DNA of 64,000 nt from Sphingobacterium bovisgrunnientis. Its GTDB lineage: Bacteria; Bacteroidota; Bacteroidia; Sphingobacteriales; Sphingobacteriaceae. Below the pieces are notes generated by a model that did no database searches, had not been told where the DNA came from, and saw nothing but the letters and a program-made list of their open reading frames with translations. Every line of letters begins with the position of its first letter. Positions within the stretch are counted from its first letter, which is position 1. The stretch lies in assembly GCF_009829085.1 (NCBI RefSeq), contig NZ_WUQY01000005.1:1-64000 (forward strand), in the 5' to 3' direction. The position numbers and the translations under genes are program-made. Below are positions 52,455-61,914 of the stretch, piece after piece.

Positions 52455-53456
52455 ATGCACAAAGTCATTTGTTCATTTCTACTTTTAGGAAGTATATATG
52501 CTGCCGAAGCGCAAAATAAAAAGTCAGAAGCGAAAAATCTAATCAAAAGCCCTCACACAAAGTATGTTCAGGAGATAGAAGGAACAACATTGTCATTCTC
52601 AATGGAAGCTATTCCGGCAGGAGTTTTTTCTATGGGGGATAATAATTCGTCCAAGGCTGATGAAAAACCTGCACATGATGTAGAAATTGATGCCTTTTGG
52701 ATGGGGACATATGAGGTCACATGGGATTTATTTCAGTCATTCTTGTATAAAGACTACGAGCAATCGAAACAGAACACAGGAACAGTTCCATCAGAAGTAG
52801 ATGCTGTAACAAGACCCACTAAGCCTTATTTAGATATGACTTTTGGGTTTGGAAAGGAAGGATTTCCAGCTTTGGCTATGACGCATTACAATGCTATTCA
52901 ATTTTGTAAATGGTTATACGTGCGTACTGGCGTTTTCTATAGGTTACCAACAGAAGCAGAATGGGAATATGCCTGTCGTGCGGGGTCGAAAGATAACTAT
53001 TTCTTTGGTAATGATGTCTCTAAATTGAAAGATTACGCATGGTATGAAGATAACAGTGACCAAAAAACCAATGTTGTAGGGCAAAAGAAACCTAATCCGT
53101 TTGGATTGTATGATATAATAGGTAATGTAGCTGAATGGACGTATGACCAATATCATGCTGATTTCTATAAACAGTTTGCTGGCAAAAAAACAAAAAATCC
53201 CGTAGCTATCCCAACTGAATTGTATCCACATTCGGTGCGTGGAGGATCATTTGCTAGCTCTGCAAATGAATTGCGTTCAGCAGCGAGAGGAGCTTCAGAT
53301 CCGATATGGAAACAATTAGATCCACAAATGCCTAAGTCTAATTGGTGGTTTCCAGAGGCTCCATTTATTGGACTAAGATTAGTTCGTCCACTAAATGCAC
53401 CTTCTAAAGAAGAGATATTAGCTTACTATGATCAAGCTCCAATAGAGGACTTTTAA
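52455..53456 (+). CDS. SUMF1/formylglycine-generating-enzyme-like domain protein
   Basis: 333-aa secreted protein (signal peptide about 1-20, ending AEAQ) with a complete SUMF1 fold: FSMGDNNSSKADEKPAHDVEI, FWMGTYEVTWDLFQSF, RLPTEAEWEYACRAG, and DIIGNVAEWTYD in order. The C-terminal Cys pair of true formylglycine-generating enzymes is absent (VRGGSFASSANELRSAARG carries Ser/Ala instead). No sulfatase lies in the window. It opens the sugar-oxidation cluster. ATG at 52455 used, not the TTG before it. Confidence 0.87.
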   Translation: MHKVICSFLLLGSIYAAEAQNKKSEAKNLIKSPHTKYVQEIEGTTLSFSMEAIPAGVFSMGDNNSSKADEKPAHDVEIDAFWMGTYEVTWDLFQSFLYKDYEQSKQNTGTVPSEVDAVTRPTKPYLDMTFGFGKEGFPALAMTHYNAIQFCKWLYVRTGVFYRLPTEAEWEYACRAGSKDNYFFGNDVSKLKDYAWYEDNSDQKTNVVGQKKPNPFGLYDIIGNVAEWTYDQYHADFYKQFAGKKTKNPVAIPTELYPHSVRGGSFASSANELRSAARGASDPIWKQLDPQMPKSNWWFPEAPFIGLRLVRPLNAPSKEEILAYYDQAPIEDF

Positions 53457-53495
53457 AAAATAAGAATATACACTACATAACCAATCATAGAAATT

Positions 53496-54809
53496 ATGGA
53501 AAATATTAAAAGAAGAGATTTTATAAAAAATTCTGCTCTAGTAACTGGGGGAGTTGCTATGACTGCATCAAATATATCCTCAGTATTTGCTGCTGGAAAT
53601 GATGAAATTAAAGTAGCATTAATAGGCTGTGGAGGAAGAGGTACAGGAGCTGCTGCAGATGCATTGAATTCTGGTCAGAATGTGAAGTTAGTTGCTTTGG
53701 CTGATGCTTTTAAAGATAATTTAGATTCAGCTTACAACAATTTGTCGAAACGCTATTCTGCAAAGATGGACATCCCTGAATCACGTAAATACGTGGGATT
53801 TGATGCATATAAACATGCAATAAAAGATGCTGATGTCGTATTACTTGTTGCGCCTCCAGGATTCAGACCTCAACATTTTGAAGAGGCTGTAAAACAAGGT
53901 AAGCATGTTTTCATGGAAAAATCTGTTGCTGTTGATGCGCCAGGTGTAAGAAGAATTTTAGCGGCTTCAAAAATTGCTGAACAGAAAAAATTAAATGTTG
54001 TCGTTGGTTTACAACGTCGTTTCCAACATAATTACCGTGAAGGTATCAAACGTGTTTTAGATGGTGCAATTGGGGATGTTGTATCAGGTCAGGTATATTG
54101 GAATAGTGGTGGTGTGTGGGTGAGACCACGTAAACCTGGACAGACTGAAATGGACTATCAAATGCGTAACTGGTATTACTTCAACTGGTTATGTGGTGAT
54201 CATATCGTAGAGCAACACGTACATAATATTGATGTTGCGAATTGGATTAAAGGCAAGTATCCAGTGTCAATTCAAGGTGTTGGATCTCGTGCACATCGTA
54301 CAGGCAAAGAGTATGGAGAGATTTATGATAATTTCTCTATTGAGATGACTTACGATGATGGTTCTGTTGTCTTCAGTCAATGTTGTCACTTTGAAGGATC
54401 ACATAATCGTGTAGACGAAACATTCCAAGGTACTAAAGGAAGAATCTATTTATCAGCTGGTGGTAGAGCTATTCTATGGGATTCAAAAGGTAACGAGATT
54501 TATCGTCATGATCCCAAAGGAAACCCAAATCCTTATCAGCAAGAGCACGTTGAGCTATTTGCTGCTGTAGCTAAAGGAGAATACAAATTTAATAATGCAG
54601 AATATGGTGCATACAGTTCATTAGCTGGTATTATTGGACGTATTGCGTGTTATACAGGAAAAGTAATCAAATGGGATGATGCATTAAAATCTGAAATTGA
54701 CTTAATGCCAGAAACATTAGCTTGGGATGCAAAACCAAAAATTCTTCCTGATGCAAATGGTATATACCCAGTAGCAGTACCTGGTATAAACACGAATTTA
54801 TTCATATAA
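53496..54809 (+). CDS. Gfo/Idh/MocA family oxidoreductase, Tat-exported
   Basis: 437-aa NAD(P)-dependent oxidoreductase with a Tat-type leader (RRDFIKN, residues 6-12) cleaved near AAG. The Rossmann GCGGRGTGAA motif is at about residues 44-53, and EKSVAVD and the WYYFNWLCGDHIVEQHVHN stretch fall in the second domain. Related proteins act on glycosides and inositols, sometimes with tightly bound cofactor outside the cytoplasm. Fourth-from-last motif residues are typical. ApbE starts 4 bases later. Confidence 0.9.
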   Translation: MENIKRRDFIKNSALVTGGVAMTASNISSVFAAGNDEIKVALIGCGGRGTGAAADALNSGQNVKLVALADAFKDNLDSAYNNLSKRYSAKMDIPESRKYVGFDAYKHAIKDADVVLLVAPPGFRPQHFEEAVKQGKHVFMEKSVAVDAPGVRRILAASKIAEQKKLNVVVGLQRRFQHNYREGIKRVLDGAIGDVVSGQVYWNSGGVWVRPRKPGQTEMDYQMRNWYYFNWLCGDHIVEQHVHNIDVANWIKGKYPVSIQGVGSRAHRTGKEYGEIYDNFSIEMTYDDGSVVFSQCCHFEGSHNRVDETFQGTKGRIYLSAGGRAILWDSKGNEIYRHDPKGNPNPYQQEHVELFAAVAKGEYKFNNAEYGAYSSLAGIIGRIACYTGKVIKWDDALKSEIDLMPETLAWDAKPKILPDANGIYPVAVPGINTNLFI

Positions 54810-54813
54810 ATAC

Positions 54814-55812
54814 TTGAAACTTTTTATTCTTATATCTTATATTCTGATAGGATATGTTGCTTATGCGGCATATCCTATTTCAAATTCATTATATACCATT
54901 TCGGGGCAGGCACAAGGAACTACGTATTCTATTAAATATTATGCTGCAGATAAGGTCGTTTCAAAAGATGAAGTAGATAGTATTTTTAATGTTATTGATG
55001 AATCAATGTCTTTGTATAAAAATAATTCATTAATCAATCAATTTAACTCCTCATCTAATAAACGCGTGAAACTTGATTCGCATATGTATAATGTCGTAAA
55101 AGCGAGTTTCGATTATCACAAGAAAACTAAAGGCTATTTTGATATTACGGTATTTCCCTTGATGAAATTGTGGGGATTCGGACCAGAAGGATTTCGGAAT
55201 AATCCTACACAAAATCAAGTGGATAGTGTTCGTCAATTTGTCGGCCTTAATAAGCTCAGATTAAAAGGTAAATACTTAGAGAAAAGAAATAAAAATACGG
55301 CCATTGATTTGAATGGAATAGCGCAAGGATATACGGTGGATGTGCTATCTGATTTTCTTAATAATAAAGGTGTTCAATCTTCTATGGTCGAAGTGGGGGG
55401 CGAAATTTATTGTTTCGGTGTGAAGCCAAATGGCGAAACATACAAGATAGAGATACAGCGACCAAATAATAATTCTGCTACATCTTACAAGGTTTCAATA
55501 AAAGATAAGGCTATCACCACTTCTGGAAGTTATGAGAAATATCGCATTGTAAATGGCAAAAGATTATCGCACCATATCGATCCACATACAGGAAGTCCAT
55601 TAACTAATAATATACTTTCTGTTACCGTTATCGCTAATACTGCTATGCAGGCAGACGCTTTGGATAATTATTTAATGTATTTGAAACCTGAAGACGCAAT
55701 TTCGTATATCGAGAGAGTTCCTCAGGCTGAGGCATATATAATATATTCTGAAAATTATACGTTAAAAGAATTGCAAAGCTCAGGATTTAATAATTATATT
55801 TATAACCAATAA
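54814..55812 (+). CDS. apbE: FAD:protein FMN transferase (ApbE family)
   Basis: 332-aa exported flavin transferase that attaches FMN covalently to Thr/Ser of partner proteins. Signal-like N-terminus, then QGTTYSIKY, DLNGIAQGYTVD, VEVGGEI, TSGSYE, HHIDPHTG and MQADALDN. The last motif normally ends DALST/DALAT, so the Thr is replaced by Asn. The start codon must be TTG (54814); the next Met lies well inside the protein. Tightly packed between the first Gfo/Idh and the TIM-barrel gene. Confidence 0.9.
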   Translation: MKLFILISYILIGYVAYAAYPISNSLYTISGQAQGTTYSIKYYAADKVVSKDEVDSIFNVIDESMSLYKNNSLINQFNSSSNKRVKLDSHMYNVVKASFDYHKKTKGYFDITVFPLMKLWGFGPEGFRNNPTQNQVDSVRQFVGLNKLRLKGKYLEKRNKNTAIDLNGIAQGYTVDVLSDFLNNKGVQSSMVEVGGEIYCFGVKPNGETYKIEIQRPNNNSATSYKVSIKDKAITTSGSYEKYRIVNGKRLSHHIDPHTGSPLTNNILSVTVIANTAMQADALDNYLMYLKPEDAISYIERVPQAEAYIIYSENYTLKELQSSGFNNYIYNQ

Positions 55813-55830
55813 TCAACCATTATAAACGAC

Positions 55831-56751
55831 ATGAAGAGAAACGATTTTATCAAAAATTCAGGCTTGCTATTAACAGGAGCTTTCTTGTCAAGTAATAAAA
55901 CATCAGATTTTATAAAACCAGATAAAGAAATGATTAAATCAACCCCTTTTAAATTAGATTATGCACCACATCAAGGAATGTTTTCTGCTTCAGCAGGTAA
56001 AAGTTTTTTAGATGAAATCAAATACATGCACGATTTAGGTTTCCGCAGTATTGAGGACAACGGTATGCCTGGACGTTCTATTGAGGAACAAACAAAAATC
56101 GGCGAGCTTTTAGCTAAATTGGGAATGCGCATGGGGGTATTTGTTGTGCCTAAAGGAGGTAACGGACAAAATACTTTGGCTGCGAACAAACAAGAACATA
56201 TTGATATCTTCCTTAAAGGTTGTCGTGACTCTGTAGAAGTTGCCAAACGTGTAAATGCAAAATGGGTTACTGTTGTTCCTGGTGATTATCAGCGCAACTT
56301 GCCTATTGGAGTACAAACCGCAAACGTTATAGAAGCATTAAAAAGAGGTTCAGAAATTTTAGAACCACATGGCATTACTATGGTTTTAGAGCCATTGAGT
56401 GATACACCTAATTTATTTTTACGCTATACGGATCAGACGTACGAAATTTGTAAAGCTGTAAATAGTCCTTCTTGTAAAATATTATACGATGCGTACCATC
56501 AACAAAAAAATGAAGGAAATTTGATCAATTTGATGGATATGTGTTGGTCTGAGATTGCTTATATACAAATAGGCGACAATCCAGGAAGAAAAGAGCCATA
56601 TACTGGTGAGATCAATTATAAAAATGTATTCAAGTGGTTACACAATAAGGGATATAAGGGAATCGTGGGAATGGAACATGGAATGTCTAAATCTGGTAAA
56701 GAGGGCGAAGATATTTTAGTAGCAGCCTATAGAGAGGCAGATAACTTTTAA
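55831..56751 (+). CDS. TIM-barrel sugar isomerase/epimerase family protein
   Basis: 306-aa xylose-isomerase-like TIM barrel (hydroxypyruvate isomerase group). A Tat-like leader (KRNDFIKNS) precedes the barrel. Metal and catalytic residues are visible as the Glu in VLEPLSD, Asp/His in LYDAYHQQ, Gln/Asp in IQIGDNPGR and the Glu in GMEHG. It lies 18 bases after apbE. Probably converts a keto-sugar intermediate, possibly outside the cytoplasm. Confidence 0.87.
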   Translation: MKRNDFIKNSGLLLTGAFLSSNKTSDFIKPDKEMIKSTPFKLDYAPHQGMFSASAGKSFLDEIKYMHDLGFRSIEDNGMPGRSIEEQTKIGELLAKLGMRMGVFVVPKGGNGQNTLAANKQEHIDIFLKGCRDSVEVAKRVNAKWVTVVPGDYQRNLPIGVQTANVIEALKRGSEILEPHGITMVLEPLSDTPNLFLRYTDQTYEICKAVNSPSCKILYDAYHQQKNEGNLINLMDMCWSEIAYIQIGDNPGRKEPYTGEINYKNVFKWLHNKGYKGIVGMEHGMSKSGKEGEDILVAAYREADNF

Positions 56752-56772
56752 TTTGATTAATCATATATAAAC

Positions 56773-58011
56773 ATGAATTCAGTTATAAAAACTAAATTAT
56801 CATTTATGATGTTCCTCGAATTTTTTATTTGGGGAGCATGGTTTGTTACATTGGGAACGTTCTTGAGCCAAAATTTGAAGGCTAATGACTTTGAAATTGC
56901 CAATGTATTTTCTACACAATCTCTAGGAGCTATTATAGCACCTTTTATAGTAGGGATGATCGCAGATCGATTCTTTAATGCTGAGCGTGTATTAGGTATT
57001 CTTCATTTGGTAGGTGCATTTTTATTGTATCAAATGTACCAATCAGCGGAGTACAGTACGTTCTATCCTTATGTATTGAGTTATATGATATTATATATGC
57101 CAACGTTAGCATTGGCTAGTTCTATATCATTTAGACAACTAAAAAATCCTGAAAAGGAATTCTCTGCAATTCGTATATGGGGAACTATAGGTTGGATCGT
57201 TGCTGGTTTGTCTATCAGTTATTTATTCAAATGGGATGCAGCGGCTGGTGAAGGCGCATTGAAAAATACATTTTTGATGGCTGCAATAGCTTCAGCTGTA
57301 TTGGGTTTGTTCTCATTTATTTTACCAAGTACGCCGCCAATCAAAGCTGCAGAAGGCGAAAAACCATCATTCTCATCAATTGTCGGACTAGATGCTATTA
57401 AATTATTGAAAGATAGAAATTTCTTTATTTTCTTTATTTCTTCTGTTTTAATATGTATTCCGTTGGCATTTTATTACCAAAATGCGAATTTATTCTTGAC
57501 AGAAATTGGTTTAGAAAATCCTACAGGCAAGATGACGATCGGTCAGATCTCGGAAGTGTTATTCTTATTATTACTTCCTGTTTTCTTCTCTAAATTTGGT
57601 TTCAAAAAAACAATTTTAGTGGGGATGTTAGCTTGGGCAGTTCGCTATTTATTATTTGCTTATGGTGATGCTGGCGAGCTTACTTTTATGCTGATATTAG
57701 GAATTGCATTACACGGTATCTGTTATGATTTCTTCTTCGTGTCTGGACAAATTTATACAGACAGCAAGGCTGGGGAAAAATATAAATCGGCAGCGCAAGG
57801 TTTAATTACTTTAGCTACGTATGGTATAGGACAGTTGATCGGATTTTGGGTAGCAAGTTTCATTGGTGACAAATACAAAGAGTTAAAAGGTGTTGACTTA
57901 CCTGGATTCTGGGAAAAAACTTGGTTTGTTCCTGCTGTCATAGCTCTTGTAGTTATGGTAATATTCATGATTTTCTTCAAAGACGAGAAAGTCAAAACAA
58001 TTGAAAAGTAG
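56773..58011 (+). CDS. NHS-family MFS permease (nucleoside permease-like)
   Basis: 412-aa 12-helix permease of the nucleoside:H+ symporter family (NupG/XapB-like): FFIWGAWFVTLGTFL in TM1, the GMIADRFF loop, IRIWGTIGWIVAGL in TM5, and C-terminal GDKYKELKGVDLPGFW. Members in Bacteroidota often sit next to Gfo/Idh genes, so here I infer import of a sugar or keto-sugar, not a nucleoside. It lies 21 bases after the isomerase gene; its stop is 28 bases before the GMC gene. Confidence 0.85.
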   Translation: MNSVIKTKLSFMMFLEFFIWGAWFVTLGTFLSQNLKANDFEIANVFSTQSLGAIIAPFIVGMIADRFFNAERVLGILHLVGAFLLYQMYQSAEYSTFYPYVLSYMILYMPTLALASSISFRQLKNPEKEFSAIRIWGTIGWIVAGLSISYLFKWDAAAGEGALKNTFLMAAIASAVLGLFSFILPSTPPIKAAEGEKPSFSSIVGLDAIKLLKDRNFFIFFISSVLICIPLAFYYQNANLFLTEIGLENPTGKMTIGQISEVLFLLLLPVFFSKFGFKKTILVGMLAWAVRYLLFAYGDAGELTFMLILGIALHGICYDFFFVSGQIYTDSKAGEKYKSAAQGLITLATYGIGQLIGFWVASFIGDKYKELKGVDLPGFWEKTWFVPAVIALVVMVIFMIFFKDEKVKTIEK

Positions 58012-58039
58012 ATTTTATTACAATATAAGCTTAATTAAA

Positions 58040-59734
58040 ATGGTAGAGAATAATATTTATGATGCAATTGTCATCGGATCTGGAATCAGTGGGGGATGGG
58101 CTGCGAAGGAGCTGACTGAGAAAGGTCTTAAAACAATTATGTTGGAAAGAGGTAGAAATATAGAACATATTAAGGATTATACTTCTCCGACAAAATCACC
58201 ATGGGAATTTCCACATGCAGGTGGAAGAACTCAACAAATGATTCAAGATTATCCAGTATTGAAACGTGATTATCCATTGAATGAAAAAAATCTTGGGTAC
58301 TGGGTAAATGAAAAAGAAAGCCCTTATACAGAAATTAAAAGATTTGACTGGTATCGTGGGTATCATGTAGGTGGTAGATCATTGATGTGGGGACGTCAAT
58401 CTTACCGTCTTAGCGATTTGGATTTTGAAGCAAACGCTAAAGATGGTCACGGTGTTGATTGGCCTATTCGCTATAAAGATATTGCGCCATGGTATAGTTA
58501 TGTAGAGAAGTTTGCAGGTATTTCTGGTAATAGAGATGGTCTAGGCGATATCTTGCCAGATGGTGAATTCATGCCTCCTATGCCGATGAACGTAGTAGAG
58601 AAAGATTATGCAGAGCGATTGAAGAAATCACAGTATGGTGGTAAACGCCACTTTATCATGGGTAGAACAGCTAATATCACTGTTCCGCATAATGGTCGTG
58701 TCAACTGTCAATTTCAAAACAGATGTTGGGAAGGTTGTAATTTTGGAGCTTATTTTAGTACACAATCGGCTACTTTGCCAGCGGCTGTAAAGACTGGTAA
58801 CCTTACTGTAAGACCTTTTTCTATTGTGACTCGTATTATTTATGATAAAGACACAAAGCGAGCAAAAGGAGTAGAAATCATTGATGCGGAAACAAACCAA
58901 ACGTATGAATTCCACGCAAAAGTTGTATTTGTATGTGCTTCTGCGTTAAATTCTTCGTGGGTATTGATGAATTCAGCTACTGATGTATGGGAAGGTGGAT
59001 TAGGAAGTAGTAGTGGTGAATTGGGACATAATTTAATGGATCATCACTTGGGTGTTGGTGCATCCGGACGTGTTGAAGGGTATTTAGACAAAACAATTTT
59101 CGGACGTCGTCCAAATGGAATATATGTTCCTCGATTCGTGAATGTTGATTTTGATGACAAAAAACGTGACTACGTACGTGGATTCGGTTATCAAGGCGGA
59201 GCTGGTCGTGGAAGAGCATGGCGATCAGAAGAAGAAAAGTATGTTGGCGGTAACTTCAAAGATGCGATTTGTGAGCCAGGAGATTGGTCGTTCGGATTTG
59301 GAGGATTCGGTGAAATTTTACCTTACCATGAAAACCACATCAAGTTAGATAAAGATAAAAAGGATAAATGGGGCTTACCTGTTCTTGCATTTGACGCTGA
59401 AATCAGAGAAAATGAGTTAAAAATGCGTAACGATATGCAAAACGAGATGAAAGAAATGCTCGAAAGCATAGGTGTGAAGGATGTGAGTAGCTGGAATAAC
59501 GTATACGGTCTTGGCCAGGGTATTCACGAAATGGGTACAGCGCGTATGGGCCGTGATCCAAAAACTTCAGTTCTTAACGGAAATAATCAAGTTTGGGACG
59601 CACTAAATGTTTTCGTCACTGATGGGGCAGCGATGACTTCTGGAGGATGTGTTAATCCTTCATTAACTTACATGGCATTGACAGCAAGAGCTGTTGATTT
59701 CGCGGTAAGCGAACTTAAAAAAGGCAATCTTTAA
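58040..59734 (+). CDS. GMC oxidoreductase, glucoside 3-dehydrogenase-like large subunit
   Basis: 564-aa FAD dehydrogenase: N-terminal GSGISGGWAAKEL (ADP-binding), the LMWGRQSYRL segment, and C-terminal active-site His in HEMGTARMG and Asn in GGCVNPSLTYMALT. C223, C229 and C233 (C-x5-C-x3-C) resemble the [3Fe-4S] site of FAD-dependent sugar dehydrogenases. No signal peptide, so it is expected to be carried out by its small Tat-leader partner, as in gluconate/glucoside dehydrogenases. The subunit-3-like gene comes two genes later. Confidence 0.88.
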   Translation: MVENNIYDAIVIGSGISGGWAAKELTEKGLKTIMLERGRNIEHIKDYTSPTKSPWEFPHAGGRTQQMIQDYPVLKRDYPLNEKNLGYWVNEKESPYTEIKRFDWYRGYHVGGRSLMWGRQSYRLSDLDFEANAKDGHGVDWPIRYKDIAPWYSYVEKFAGISGNRDGLGDILPDGEFMPPMPMNVVEKDYAERLKKSQYGGKRHFIMGRTANITVPHNGRVNCQFQNRCWEGCNFGAYFSTQSATLPAAVKTGNLTVRPFSIVTRIIYDKDTKRAKGVEIIDAETNQTYEFHAKVVFVCASALNSSWVLMNSATDVWEGGLGSSSGELGHNLMDHHLGVGASGRVEGYLDKTIFGRRPNGIYVPRFVNVDFDDKKRDYVRGFGYQGGAGRGRAWRSEEEKYVGGNFKDAICEPGDWSFGFGGFGEILPYHENHIKLDKDKKDKWGLPVLAFDAEIRENELKMRNDMQNEMKEMLESIGVKDVSSWNNVYGLGQGIHEMGTARMGRDPKTSVLNGNNQVWDALNVFVTDGAAMTSGGCVNPSLTYMALTARAVDFAVSELKKGNL

Positions 59735-59751
59735 TCTTTATCTATCTCAAA

Positions 59752-61176
59752 ATGGAAAACAATAGCAGAAGAAACTTTATAAAAACTGCAGCAGTAGCAG
59801 CTGCAGGCATTACAATTGTTCCAAGACATGTATTAGGTGGTACGGGATATCGAGCACCGAGTGATATGTTGCAAGTTGCATCAATTGGTGTAGGTGGTAT
59901 GGGTGGATCGGACGTTAATAATATTTTTGGAAGTGGTAAAGCAAATATTGCTTTCTTGTGTGATGTTGATAAAGCACGCGCTAAAGGCTCTGTAGAAAAG
60001 TTTCCTAAAGCGAAGTTCTATACCGACTTTAGAGAAATGCTTGATAAAGAGCATAAAAACATAGATGGCGTCTCTGTATCTACACCAGATCACAATCACG
60101 CTATTCAAGCTTTGGCAGCAATGCAATTGGGTAAGCACGTATACGTGCAAAAACCATTGGCACACGATGTATGGGAAGCTCGTGCATTGACTCATGCTGC
60201 AAAGAAGTATAAAGTCGTGACGCAAATGGGTAACCAAGGAGCCTCGGGTGATGGTGTACGTCAAATGCGTGAATGGGTGGATGCAGGATTGATTGGCGAT
60301 TTGGTAGAAATCTATGCATGGACAGATCGTCCGGTATGGCCTCAAGGTATTCAATGGCCAAGTCAGAAAGCTAAAGTTCCTTCCACATTAGATTGGGACA
60401 AATGGTTAGGTACTGCGCCATATACTGAATATTTTGACAAATTAGTGCCTTTCAACTGGCGTGGCTGGTGGCCTTATGGCACGGGTGCTTTAGGAGATAT
60501 GGGCTGTCATAATTTGGAAGCTCCATTCAGTATCTATGGCTTACAGTATGTAAAAGATGTACAAGCTAGTGTTGGATCTGTCTATGTAGATGAATTTAAG
60601 CGTGGATATTTTCCTGAGTCTTGTCCTCCGTCTAGCTCCGTGACAATGACTTTCCCAAAAACTTCTAAAACTAAAGGAGATGTAAAAGTACATTGGATGG
60701 ATGGCGGTATACAACCACCAAGACCAGAAGAGTTAGGACCAGACGAAATATTTGGAGATGGCGGCAATGGAATTTTGTTGATTGGTGAAAAAGGTAAGAT
60801 TTTGGCAGATACATATGCTGGTAATCCACGCCTTTTGCCAACGAACAAAACTTACAAAACCGTAAAAGAAAAATATGCGCGTGTACCAAAGGGTGCGAAT
60901 GGTCATTGGGCACAATGGGTGGAAGGTTGTATTGCTGGATATGGTAATATGGAAATGTCATCACCATTTGAGATAGCAGGACCATTGACTGAAGCCTTGC
61001 TAATGGCAAATTTGGCTATACGTGGTGTAGATTTAAAAGTAGGGGATAAATACCCTGGAAGAAGTAAAAAATTGGTTTGGGATAATGACAATATGCGTGT
61101 TACAAACTTTGATGAGGTAAATCAGTTTGTAAAACGGACATATCGCCCAGGCTGGGAAGTTAACTATACATTTTAA
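59752..61176 (+). CDS. second Gfo/Idh/MocA family oxidoreductase, Tat-exported
   Basis: 474-aa oxidoreductase with a twin-Arg leader (RRNFIKT). It has a Rossmann VGGMGGSDV motif (about 44-52), the STPDHNHA segment, VQKPLAHDVWEAR, and the QMGNQGAS and GDMGCHNLEAPF stretches typical of the GH109-adjacent/Bacteroidota branch. It differs from the Gfo/Idh at 53496. Its position between the GMC gene and the subunit-3 gene suggests a role in the same pathway. Confidence 0.9.
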   Translation: MENNSRRNFIKTAAVAAAGITIVPRHVLGGTGYRAPSDMLQVASIGVGGMGGSDVNNIFGSGKANIAFLCDVDKARAKGSVEKFPKAKFYTDFREMLDKEHKNIDGVSVSTPDHNHAIQALAAMQLGKHVYVQKPLAHDVWEARALTHAAKKYKVVTQMGNQGASGDGVRQMREWVDAGLIGDLVEIYAWTDRPVWPQGIQWPSQKAKVPSTLDWDKWLGTAPYTEYFDKLVPFNWRGWWPYGTGALGDMGCHNLEAPFSIYGLQYVKDVQASVGSVYVDEFKRGYFPESCPPSSSVTMTFPKTSKTKGDVKVHWMDGGIQPPRPEELGPDEIFGDGGNGILLIGEKGKILADTYAGNPRLLPTNKTYKTVKEKYARVPKGANGHWAQWVEGCIAGYGNMEMSSPFEIAGPLTEALLMANLAIRGVDLKVGDKYPGRSKKLVWDNDNMRVTNFDEVNQFVKRTYRPGWEVNYTF

Positions 61177-61187
61177 TACATAAAAAG

Positions 61188-61820
61188 ATGAATAGAAGAG
61201 AAGCATTACAACGCGTAGCTATGATCCTTGGTGGATCTATCGTAGGTGCTAACTTATTTTTAGAAGGTTGTACACAACCAGCTTCAAAGTCCGTAGAAGG
61301 ACTGTTCGATGCAAAAATGATTGATAGAATAGGTGATTTGGCTGATGCTATTTTGCCACCGACTTCAACACCAGGAGCGAAGGAAGCTGGTGTTGGTAAT
61401 TTTATACCTGTTTTCGTTAGAGATTGTTACACAGAAAAGCAACAAAAAGCTATTGTTGATGGACTGGCAACGTTAGATAAAACAAGTAAAGATTTGAAAG
61501 GTAAAGATTTTGCAAGCCTAACATTGGATGAGAAAACTGAAGTGGCGGATAAACTTTATAAAGAATCTGAAGAGTACAACGGTCAGCGTTGGGAGAGAAT
61601 CAAGGATGAAGTCGAGAAAAATAAGACTAAACAAAACGAACTTGTTAAACCAGATGTGGATTATGAACCAGAACATTGGTTTCATTTATTCAGACAAATG
61701 ACTTTAACAGGATATTTTAATTCTGAACTTGGATTAACAAAAGCTTTGCGCTATGTGAAAATACCGGGTAAATATGATGGTGATTATCCATACAAAAAAG
61801 GTGATAAAGCATTTGCTTAA
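61188..61820 (+). CDS. gluconate 2-dehydrogenase subunit 3-like lipoprotein
   Basis: 210-aa small subunit. The leader has both a twin-Arg start (NRREALQR) and a lipobox (FLEGC, Cys28), so it is probably Tat-exported and lipidated. The mature part has the LADAILPPTSTPGAKEAGV motif and a C-terminal HLFRQMTLTGYFNSE stretch of the family. In gluconate and glucoside 3-dehydrogenases it pairs with a GMC large subunit, here at 58040. Confidence 0.88.
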   Translation: MNRREALQRVAMILGGSIVGANLFLEGCTQPASKSVEGLFDAKMIDRIGDLADAILPPTSTPGAKEAGVGNFIPVFVRDCYTEKQQKAIVDGLATLDKTSKDLKGKDFASLTLDEKTEVADKLYKESEEYNGQRWERIKDEVEKNKTKQNELVKPDVDYEPEHWFHLFRQMTLTGYFNSELGLTKALRYVKIPGKYDGDYPYKKGDKAFA

Positions 61821-61825
61821 ACTCC

Positions 61826-61861
61826 AAAAAAAGGTGAGAACATAAAAGTCTCACCTTTTTT
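61826..61861 (+). terminator. terminator after sugar-oxidation cluster
   Basis: 13-bp hairpin (about 61827-61839 / 61849-61861) with T-run ends, just beyond the last cluster gene. It marks the 3' end of the transcription unit. Confidence 0.85.
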
Positions 61862-61914
61862 AGTTATTTGAATTAGATCTACTATTTGACGCCGAATTAT
61901 AATAGTCAATTTCT

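What the first reader, a model, noticed from the sequence alone, without database searches (positions are those of the whole stretch)
52455..61820. Extracytoplasmic sugar-oxidation cluster, possible new pathway
Eight tightly spaced genes on one strand: SUMF1 protein, two distinct Tat-exported Gfo/Idh oxidoreductases, ApbE, TIM-barrel isomerase, NHS-family permease, GMC dehydrogenase and a subunit-3 lipoprotein. The GMC/subunit-3 pair resembles glucoside 3-dehydrogenases, which make 3-keto-glycosides. Four or five members have Tat-like leaders, so I infer oxidation and rearrangement outside the cytoplasm followed by uptake. No glycoside hydrolase, TonB receptor (SusC/D) or regulator is attached, which separates it from an ordinary polysaccharide locus.
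Basis: inference. Interest (0 to 1): 0.75.

Follow-up and report, generated by a model that had tools for sequence, protein, structure and literature searches.

The report
Two-part periplasmic 3-keto sugar operon
A Sphingobacterium genome carries eight tightly packed genes that join two gene sets found apart in related bacteria, and together they are predicted to oxidise sugar glycosides outside the inner membrane and then likely import the product, a variant of the known 3-keto sugar breakdown route that includes three genes whose role there is still unknown.

Summary
In detail: eight genes on one strand, 52455-61820, with the families named, in a relative of Sphingobacterium cavernae. 'Possible new pathway' is only partly right. 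The GMC enzyme is 66-75% identical to GMC enzymes of 3-keto glycoside (lac-type) loci in Bacteroidota and Proteobacteria, including Indibacter alkaliphilus, whose LacA-DUF1080 locus is in print. New here: the cluster is a composite. Module A (SUMF1-Gfo1-ApbE-TIM) stands alone in other genera of the family; module B (NHS-GMC-Gfo2-Sub3) is the 3-dehydrogenase set; they are joined in 64 of 67 Gfo1-bearing genomes of this genus. Joined loci lack the linked cytochrome c, DUF1080 hydrolase and TIMc-type barrel seen beside many other GMC genes (0 of 39 loci versus 23, 28 and 29 of 48); the genome holds DUF1080 and a TIMc-type protein elsewhere. The cluster's own TIM barrel has an isomerase-type metal site and no eliminase H-x-H motif. 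Its ApbE is an orphan: no FMN_bind protein in the genome, no [ST]GA[ST] target in the cluster. No activity was tested.

The parts
52455..53456 (+). SUMF1-fold protein, Sec-like leader; module A
   Evidence: PF03781 148 bits; in the alignment to FGE one of the FGE cysteines of the SYCYRYRC stretch falls in a gap and the other is Ser
53496..54809 (+). Gfo1, Tat-exported Gfo/Idh oxidoreductase; module A
   Evidence: PF01408, PF22725; RRDFIK leader; 157 of 301 family genomes at E<=1e-60
54814..55812 (+). ApbE-type FAD:protein FMN transferase, Sec-like leader; module A
   Evidence: PF02424 266 bits; no FMN_bind protein in genome; no [ST]GA[ST] in the eight cluster proteins
55831..56751 (+). TIM-barrel isomerase-type protein, KR Tat-like leader; module A
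56773..58011 (+). NHS-family (nucleoside:H+ symporter-like) MFS permease; module B
   Evidence: PF03825 382 bits; near the GMC gene also in Indibacter, Alteromonas and others
58040..59734 (+). GMC flavoenzyme, predicted glycoside 3-dehydrogenase catalytic subunit (LacA-like); module B
   Evidence: PF00732, PF05199; 66-69% identity over full length to GMC of Indibacter, Halomonas, Lysobacter and Agrobacterium loci
59752..61176 (+). Gfo2, Tat-exported Gfo/Idh related to BT_2158-type glycoside 3-dehydrogenase; module B
   Evidence: NCBIfam NF058561 480 bits, below its 750 cut-off; PDB 8tdf 311 bits; RRNFIK leader
61188..61820 (+). Subunit-3 Tat lipoprotein, predicted export partner of the GMC enzyme; module B
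   Evidence: PF13618 106 bits; NRR...C leader in the orthologues shown
61822..61866 (+). terminator-like hairpin closing the cluster
   Evidence: RNA fold of 61815-61870: -17.1 kcal/mol, z -5.5

Best explanation
These eight tightly packed genes are likely one operon and are predicted to carry out the C3-oxidation ('3-keto') handling of glycosides in the periplasm, built from two gene modules that occur apart in related genomes. Predicted steps: the GMC flavoenzyme, likely carried out by its subunit-3 Tat partner, oxidises the C3 hydroxyl of a glycoside; the TIM-barrel enzyme, with an isomerase-type metal site, likely isomerises or epimerises the 3-keto sugar; a Gfo/Idh enzyme exported with its bound nucleotide (Gfo2, perhaps Gfo1) would reduce the keto group of the product or swap hydride between sugars; the NHS permease would import the result. 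The bond-cutting enzyme is not in the cluster: DUF1080 hydrolases or the H-x-H TIM-barrel protein encoded elsewhere would supply it. The roles of SUMF1, Gfo1 and ApbE are unassigned; I take them to be accessory to the same sugar chemistry. Shown: gene content, order, kinship, leader sequences, modular arrangement. Inferred: every reaction, the substrate, export, co-transcription and the electron acceptor.
For: GMC kinship over full length to lac-type loci, among them Indibacter alkaliphilus LW1 (68%, L139), an organism whose LacA and DUF1080 genes are said to lie together in PMC9007349; L139 holds DUF1080, cytochrome c, Gfo/Idh, NHS permease, TIM barrel, GMC, Sub3 and a second TIM barrel side by side. 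A flavoenzyme of Rhizobium (GlycDH), made together with a separate 'TAT-pathway signal protein' that I take to be its subunit 3, oxidises C3 of glycosides (PMC10628242). Gfo2 is nearest to glycoside 3-dehydrogenases. Modules A and B are joined in 64 of 67 Gfo1-bearing genomes of the genus; outside it 88 of 90 Gfo1-bearing family genomes also have the GMC gene (E<=1e-200) versus 94 of 143 without Gfo1 (not corrected for kinship). In bacterium A37T11 (L105 and L248, the same record) the usual TIMb still sits between NHS and GMC, while in the window's genome TIMb's one match is the cluster TIM, as if module A's TIM took its place. TIM stays with GMC in the broken-up loci of the genus that I read (L069, L075, L257, L259, L264). 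TIM lacks the H-x-H motif, which the C30 protein has.
Against: Each module lives without the other: module A in 15 of 20 loci read in other genera, module B in many loci; two Gfo1-bearing genomes lack the GMC gene. G020 lacks ApbE and Gfo2; G003 lacks Gfo1, ApbE and NHS but keeps TIM, GMC, Gfo2 and Sub3; L260 lacks ApbE and L231-L234 and L261 lack Gfo2, so several members are dispensable. In the two g39 loci read, NHS-GMC-Gfo2-Sub3 runs without a TIM gene (L262, L265). No LacB-like cytochrome is linked, and one query without a positive control found none in the genome. The joined state needs at least six changes on the GMC tree (second GMC copies of the genus count there as unjoined). The Gfo1 model was poor (pLDDT 57.1). 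The co-occurrence is confounded by lineages that lack both.
Confidence: 0.6

Rival explanations
1. Extracytoplasmic sugar interconversion without cleavage: GMC or Gfo2 oxidises C3, the TIM protein epimerises C4 of the 3-keto glycoside, and the second Gfo/Idh reduces it back, as in the E. coli YcjQ-YcjR-YcjS set. The cluster would convert rare glycosides to glucosides before uptake.
Confidence: 0.2
2. Two operons joined without a shared task: module A serves another periplasmic process (cofactor or envelope sugar chemistry), and module B alone does glycoside oxidation.
For: Module A stands alone as the full four genes in 10 of the 15 loci of other genera that have no GMC gene in the 18 kb read; three genomes of the genus have SUMF1-Gfo1-ApbE split off.
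Against: Joining in 64 of 67 genomes of the genus over 79-99% GMC identity, tight spacing, TIMb absent where module A's TIM is beside NHS, and in the three split genomes TIM stays with module B while SUMF1-Gfo1-ApbE faces a Gfo-DUF1080 pair.
Confidence: 0.15
3. Inositol or other polyol oxidation rather than glycosides (Gfo1 nearest to inositol dehydrogenases; GMC acting on alcohols).
For: Gfo1's best curated and PDB matches are inositol dehydrogenases (75 and 61 bits); the best solved GMC relatives are fructose and glucose dehydrogenases.
Against: The Gfo1 score is far under the curated cut-off (355); the GMC's close relatives sit in loci with 3-keto-disaccharide hydrolases.
Confidence: 0.05

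Closest known systems
LacABC lactose/glycoside 3-dehydrogenase loci (Caulobacter, Indibacter, Pedobacter; PMC9007349)
   Same: GMC catalytic subunit, subunit 3, permease and an epimerase-type TIM barrel next to one another
   Different: no linked cytochrome c, no linked DUF1080 hydrolase, no cytoplasmic Gfo/TIM pair; adds SUMF1, Gfo1, ApbE
GlycDH plus TAT protein of Rhizobium/Agrobacterium and the AtOGE four-enzyme route (PMC10628242)
   Same: flavoenzyme with a separate Tat-signal partner; C3 oxidation as first step
   Different: the linked TIM barrel here lacks the eliminase H-x-H motif; the H-x-H protein is elsewhere in the genome
BT_2158-type glycoside 3-dehydrogenases and PDB 8tdf/8tdh
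   Same: Gfo2 is a relative over nearly its whole length (480 and 311 bits)
   Different: below the family cut-off of 750 bits; sits with a flavin-dependent 3-dehydrogenase
Levoglucosan route LgdA-B1-B2-C of Bacillus smithii (PMC7676230)
   Same: oxidation, elimination, hydration and reduction divided among separate enzymes, two of them annotated as sugar phosphate isomerases
   Different: no GMC enzyme, SUMF1 or ApbE named in the passages read
E. coli YcjQ-YcjR-YcjS 3-keto-glucoside set (PMC11543891, 6wn6)
   Different: ABC transporter and phosphorylases; no GMC enzyme named in the passages read

Membership tests
LacABC-type glycoside 3-dehydrogenase | GMC subunit homologous to LacA over full length | tested here: met
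   68% identity to the GMC of the Indibacter locus with DUF1080 and cytochrome c; Caulobacter LacA itself was not compared
LacABC-type glycoside 3-dehydrogenase | small Tat subunit (PF13618) beside it | tested here: met
LacABC-type glycoside 3-dehydrogenase | linked cytochrome c subunit (LacB) | tested here: not met
   0 of 39 joined loci (35 distinct) against 23 of 48 other loci; elsewhere in the genome none by one query without a control. So: works like it, not filed as LacABC
LacABC-type glycoside 3-dehydrogenase | C3 oxidation of glycosides | not testable with these tools
   needs enzyme assay
BT_2158 glycoside 3-dehydrogenase (NF058561), Gfo2 | score above curated cut-off 750 | tested here: not met
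   479.8 bits
TIM-barrel 3-keto-glycoside eliminase (AtOGE type), window TIM | His ligand and catalytic His as H-x-H (His132, His134 of AtOGE) | tested here: not met
   E187-P-L189 at what I take to be the matching strand; H-x-H in 0 of 55 TIM/TIMb/TIMind proteins and 44 of 44 TIMc/TIMind2 proteins; matched by sequence, not by superposition
Hydroxypyruvate isomerase (TIGR03234), window TIM | score above cut-off 353 | tested here: not met
   119 bits
Formylglycine-generating enzyme, SUMF1 | catalytic cysteine pair (recalled as those of the SYCYRYRC stretch) | tested here: not met
   in the alignment to FGE one falls in a gap and the other is Ser
ApbE flavinylation system | partner with FMN_bind domain or [ST]GA[ST] motif | tested here: not met
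   no FMN_bind in genome, controls ring in 4 of 14; no [ST]GA[ST] in the cluster; the other ApbE sits with DUF2271 and PepSY

The most novel reading that the evidence does not exclude
SUMF1-Gfo1-ApbE-TIM is a new periplasmic sugar-processing module of Sphingobacteriaceae in which ApbE attaches FMN to a protein outside every known target family, giving a flavin relay that replaces the missing LacB cytochrome when the module is joined to a glycoside 3-dehydrogenase.
Probability: 0.12. Interest if true: 0.8.

Novelty: new variant of a known kind. Interest (0 to 1): 0.5.

Why it matters
It shows a 3-keto glycoside locus rebuilt by joining two modules, without the usual linked cytochrome and bond-cutting enzymes. 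It makes a natural test bed for what the conserved but uncharacterised SUMF1-Gfo1-ApbE-TIM set does, for where an ApbE without a known target puts its flavin, and for where the electrons of a LacA-type enzyme go without LacB.

Tried and rejected
TIM as the bond-cutting eliminase: rejected on the missing H-x-H motif. SUMF1 as a sulfatase-activating enzyme: rejected on the missing cysteines. ApbE acting on GMC: the DGAA stretch of GMC does not fit [ST]GA[ST], and ApbE also occurs in module A without GMC. The structure model of Gfo1 was too poor to search with. In the fold comparison of the TIM model, AtOGE (8bvk) and the 8tc entries were not among the 50 rows shown, which excludes nothing. The promoter/terminator scan found no more sites than shuffles and missed the end hairpin. 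Paper searches. None of the titles listed is about this cluster; others (2 papers, not opened; 0 papers) were aimed at the ApbE/SUMF1/Gfo/isomerase set. The Nature 2024 paper on an alternative 3-keto glycan route is recalled; it was not among the 15 of 99 papers listed. That PDB 8tdf, 8tdh and the 8tc entries belong to that work, that 3ngf and 1k77 are hydroxypyruvate/oxo-tetronate isomerase-like, and which FGE cysteines are catalytic, is recalled.

Full report
Observation. Eight ORFs on the + strand from 52455 to 61820 are as described: SUMF1, Gfo1, ApbE, TIM barrel, NHS permease, GMC, Gfo2, subunit 3. The gaps are 4 to 39 bases when GMC is started at its ATG (58040), and a strong hairpin follows the last gene. 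Upstream lies an AEC-type transporter, downstream a dihydroorotase. Leaders, judged by eye: twin-arginine in Gfo1, Gfo2 and the lipoprotein Sub3, kept in the orthologues shown; the TIM protein has K-R; SUMF1 and ApbE look Sec-exported; GMC has no leader and would be carried by Sub3. TatC is present. The genome is a close relative of Sphingobacterium cavernae: a TIM protein of that name is 99% identical, on a contig of the same length as G035:C77.

The GMC enzyme. Next to it often lie Sub3, the NHS permease, TIM barrels, a cytochrome c and a DUF1080 protein. Indibacter alkaliphilus LW1 is an organism that PMC9007349 (abstract, passages and section 10 read) names as having LacA and DUF1080 encoded near each other; its locus here (L139) holds DUF1080, cytochrome c, Gfo/Idh, NHS, TIM barrel, GMC, Sub3 and a second TIM barrel in a row. 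The same paper reports that a putative lactose dehydrogenase of a Pedobacter is important for lactose, salicin and other glycosides. PMC10628242 (abstract, sections 7, 8 and 14 and passages read) shows GlycDH, a flavoenzyme made together with a Tat-signal protein, oxidising C3 of glucosides. So the first step is predicted with fair confidence; the substrate is not.

Two modules. Gfo1 is found at E<=1e-60 in 157 of 301 family genomes. I read 20 loci from other genera of the family: in 15 no GMC gene lies within the 18 kb fetched, and in 10 of those 15 the four genes SUMF1-Gfo1-ApbE-TIM stand as a unit (module A); the other five lack ApbE, TIM or SUMF1. In the remaining five (L231-L234, L248), and in L261, modules A and B are joined. 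In the window's genus the two genes are within about 6 kb in 64 of 67 Gfo1-bearing genomes (tables, read by eye). In 17 of 19 same-genus loci all eight genes keep the same order; L069 lacks ApbE and Gfo2, L075 lacks Gfo1, ApbE and NHS and has only a piece of SUMF1; L260, read later, lacks ApbE. In three genomes (G263, G207, G169) SUMF1-Gfo1-ApbE lies beside a divergent Gfo-DUF1080 pair, while TIM-NHS-GMC-Gfo2-Sub3 lies elsewhere (domains of the G263 pair). Bacterium A37T11 (L105, L248: one record fetched twice) still has TIMb, the usual TIM barrel of lac loci, between NHS and GMC as well as module A's TIM; in the window's genome TIMb has no match but the cluster TIM itself. On a GMC tree of 53 rows the joined state needs at least six changes (second GMC copies of the genus count as unjoined), so joining or splitting was not a single clean event. 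Outside the genus 88 of 90 Gfo1-bearing genomes have the GMC gene at E<=1e-200 against 94 of 143 others (Fisher p 3e-10, not corrected for kinship).

What is missing. Among loci of at least 18 kb, the joined ones (13 of 14 named, 26 from the family sample, which include L075 that has lost most of module A; 4 loci occur in both sets, so 35 distinct) hold no LacB-like cytochrome, no DUF1080 and no TIMc/TIMind2 protein, against 23, 28 and 29 of the 48 (of 66) other named loci of that length. The family-sample stretches are 18 kb, the named ones up to 21.7 kb. The window's genome has 10 DUF1080 matches on other contigs and a TIMc-type, H-x-H TIM barrel with a twin-arginine leader at C30. A LacB-like query found nothing in the genome, but without a positive control. 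The electron acceptor is therefore open.

Gfo2, Gfo1, SUMF1, ApbE. Gfo2 is a relative of glycoside 3-dehydrogenases (480 bits of a 750 cut-off; 8tdf 311 bits). Gfo1 has only weak named relatives (inositol dehydrogenases, aldose-aldose oxidoreductase). SUMF1 lacks the formylglycine-enzyme cysteines. The genome has two ApbE genes and no FMN_bind protein (controls rang in 4 of 14). The other ApbE sits with PepSY and DUF2271, a described flavinylation set (PMC8238504, passages read). That paper reports that 17% of genomes have ApbE without FMN-binding proteins, and a [S/T]GA[S/T] target motif; none of the eight cluster proteins has it. This ApbE is thus without a known target.

Verdict. A real, conserved cluster; a new variant of the 3-keto glycoside loci made of two modules. 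The chemistry is inferred throughout, and three of the eight genes still want a role.

Noticed in passing
G263, G207, G169 (L256, L258, L263): SUMF1-Gfo1-ApbE lies head to head with a Gfo/Idh (Tat-like leader in L256) plus 3-keto-disaccharide hydrolase (DUF1080) pair, a further tie of module A to 3-keto sugar chemistry.
   Followed up: partly
L170, L143, L144, L163: Tandem arrays of four to six GMC genes at one locus (six in L170); three of these four end in one subunit-3 gene.
   Followed up: no
G000:C53 (L046): A second GMC-subunit-3 pair of this genome lies next to a TonB-receptor/SusD pair, so a GMC pair can sit in a polysaccharide-type locus too.
   Followed up: partly
G000:C254 (L221): PepSY-DUF2271-ApbE flavinylation locus that accounts for the genome's other ApbE.
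   Followed up: yes
P0202: A 76% identical Gfo1 is listed for Leadbetterella byssophila, outside Sphingobacteriaceae as recalled, perhaps by transfer.
   Followed up: no
G035:C1:288167-289846: A GMC paralogue in the nearest genome has one in-frame TAG, possibly a decaying copy.
   Followed up: no
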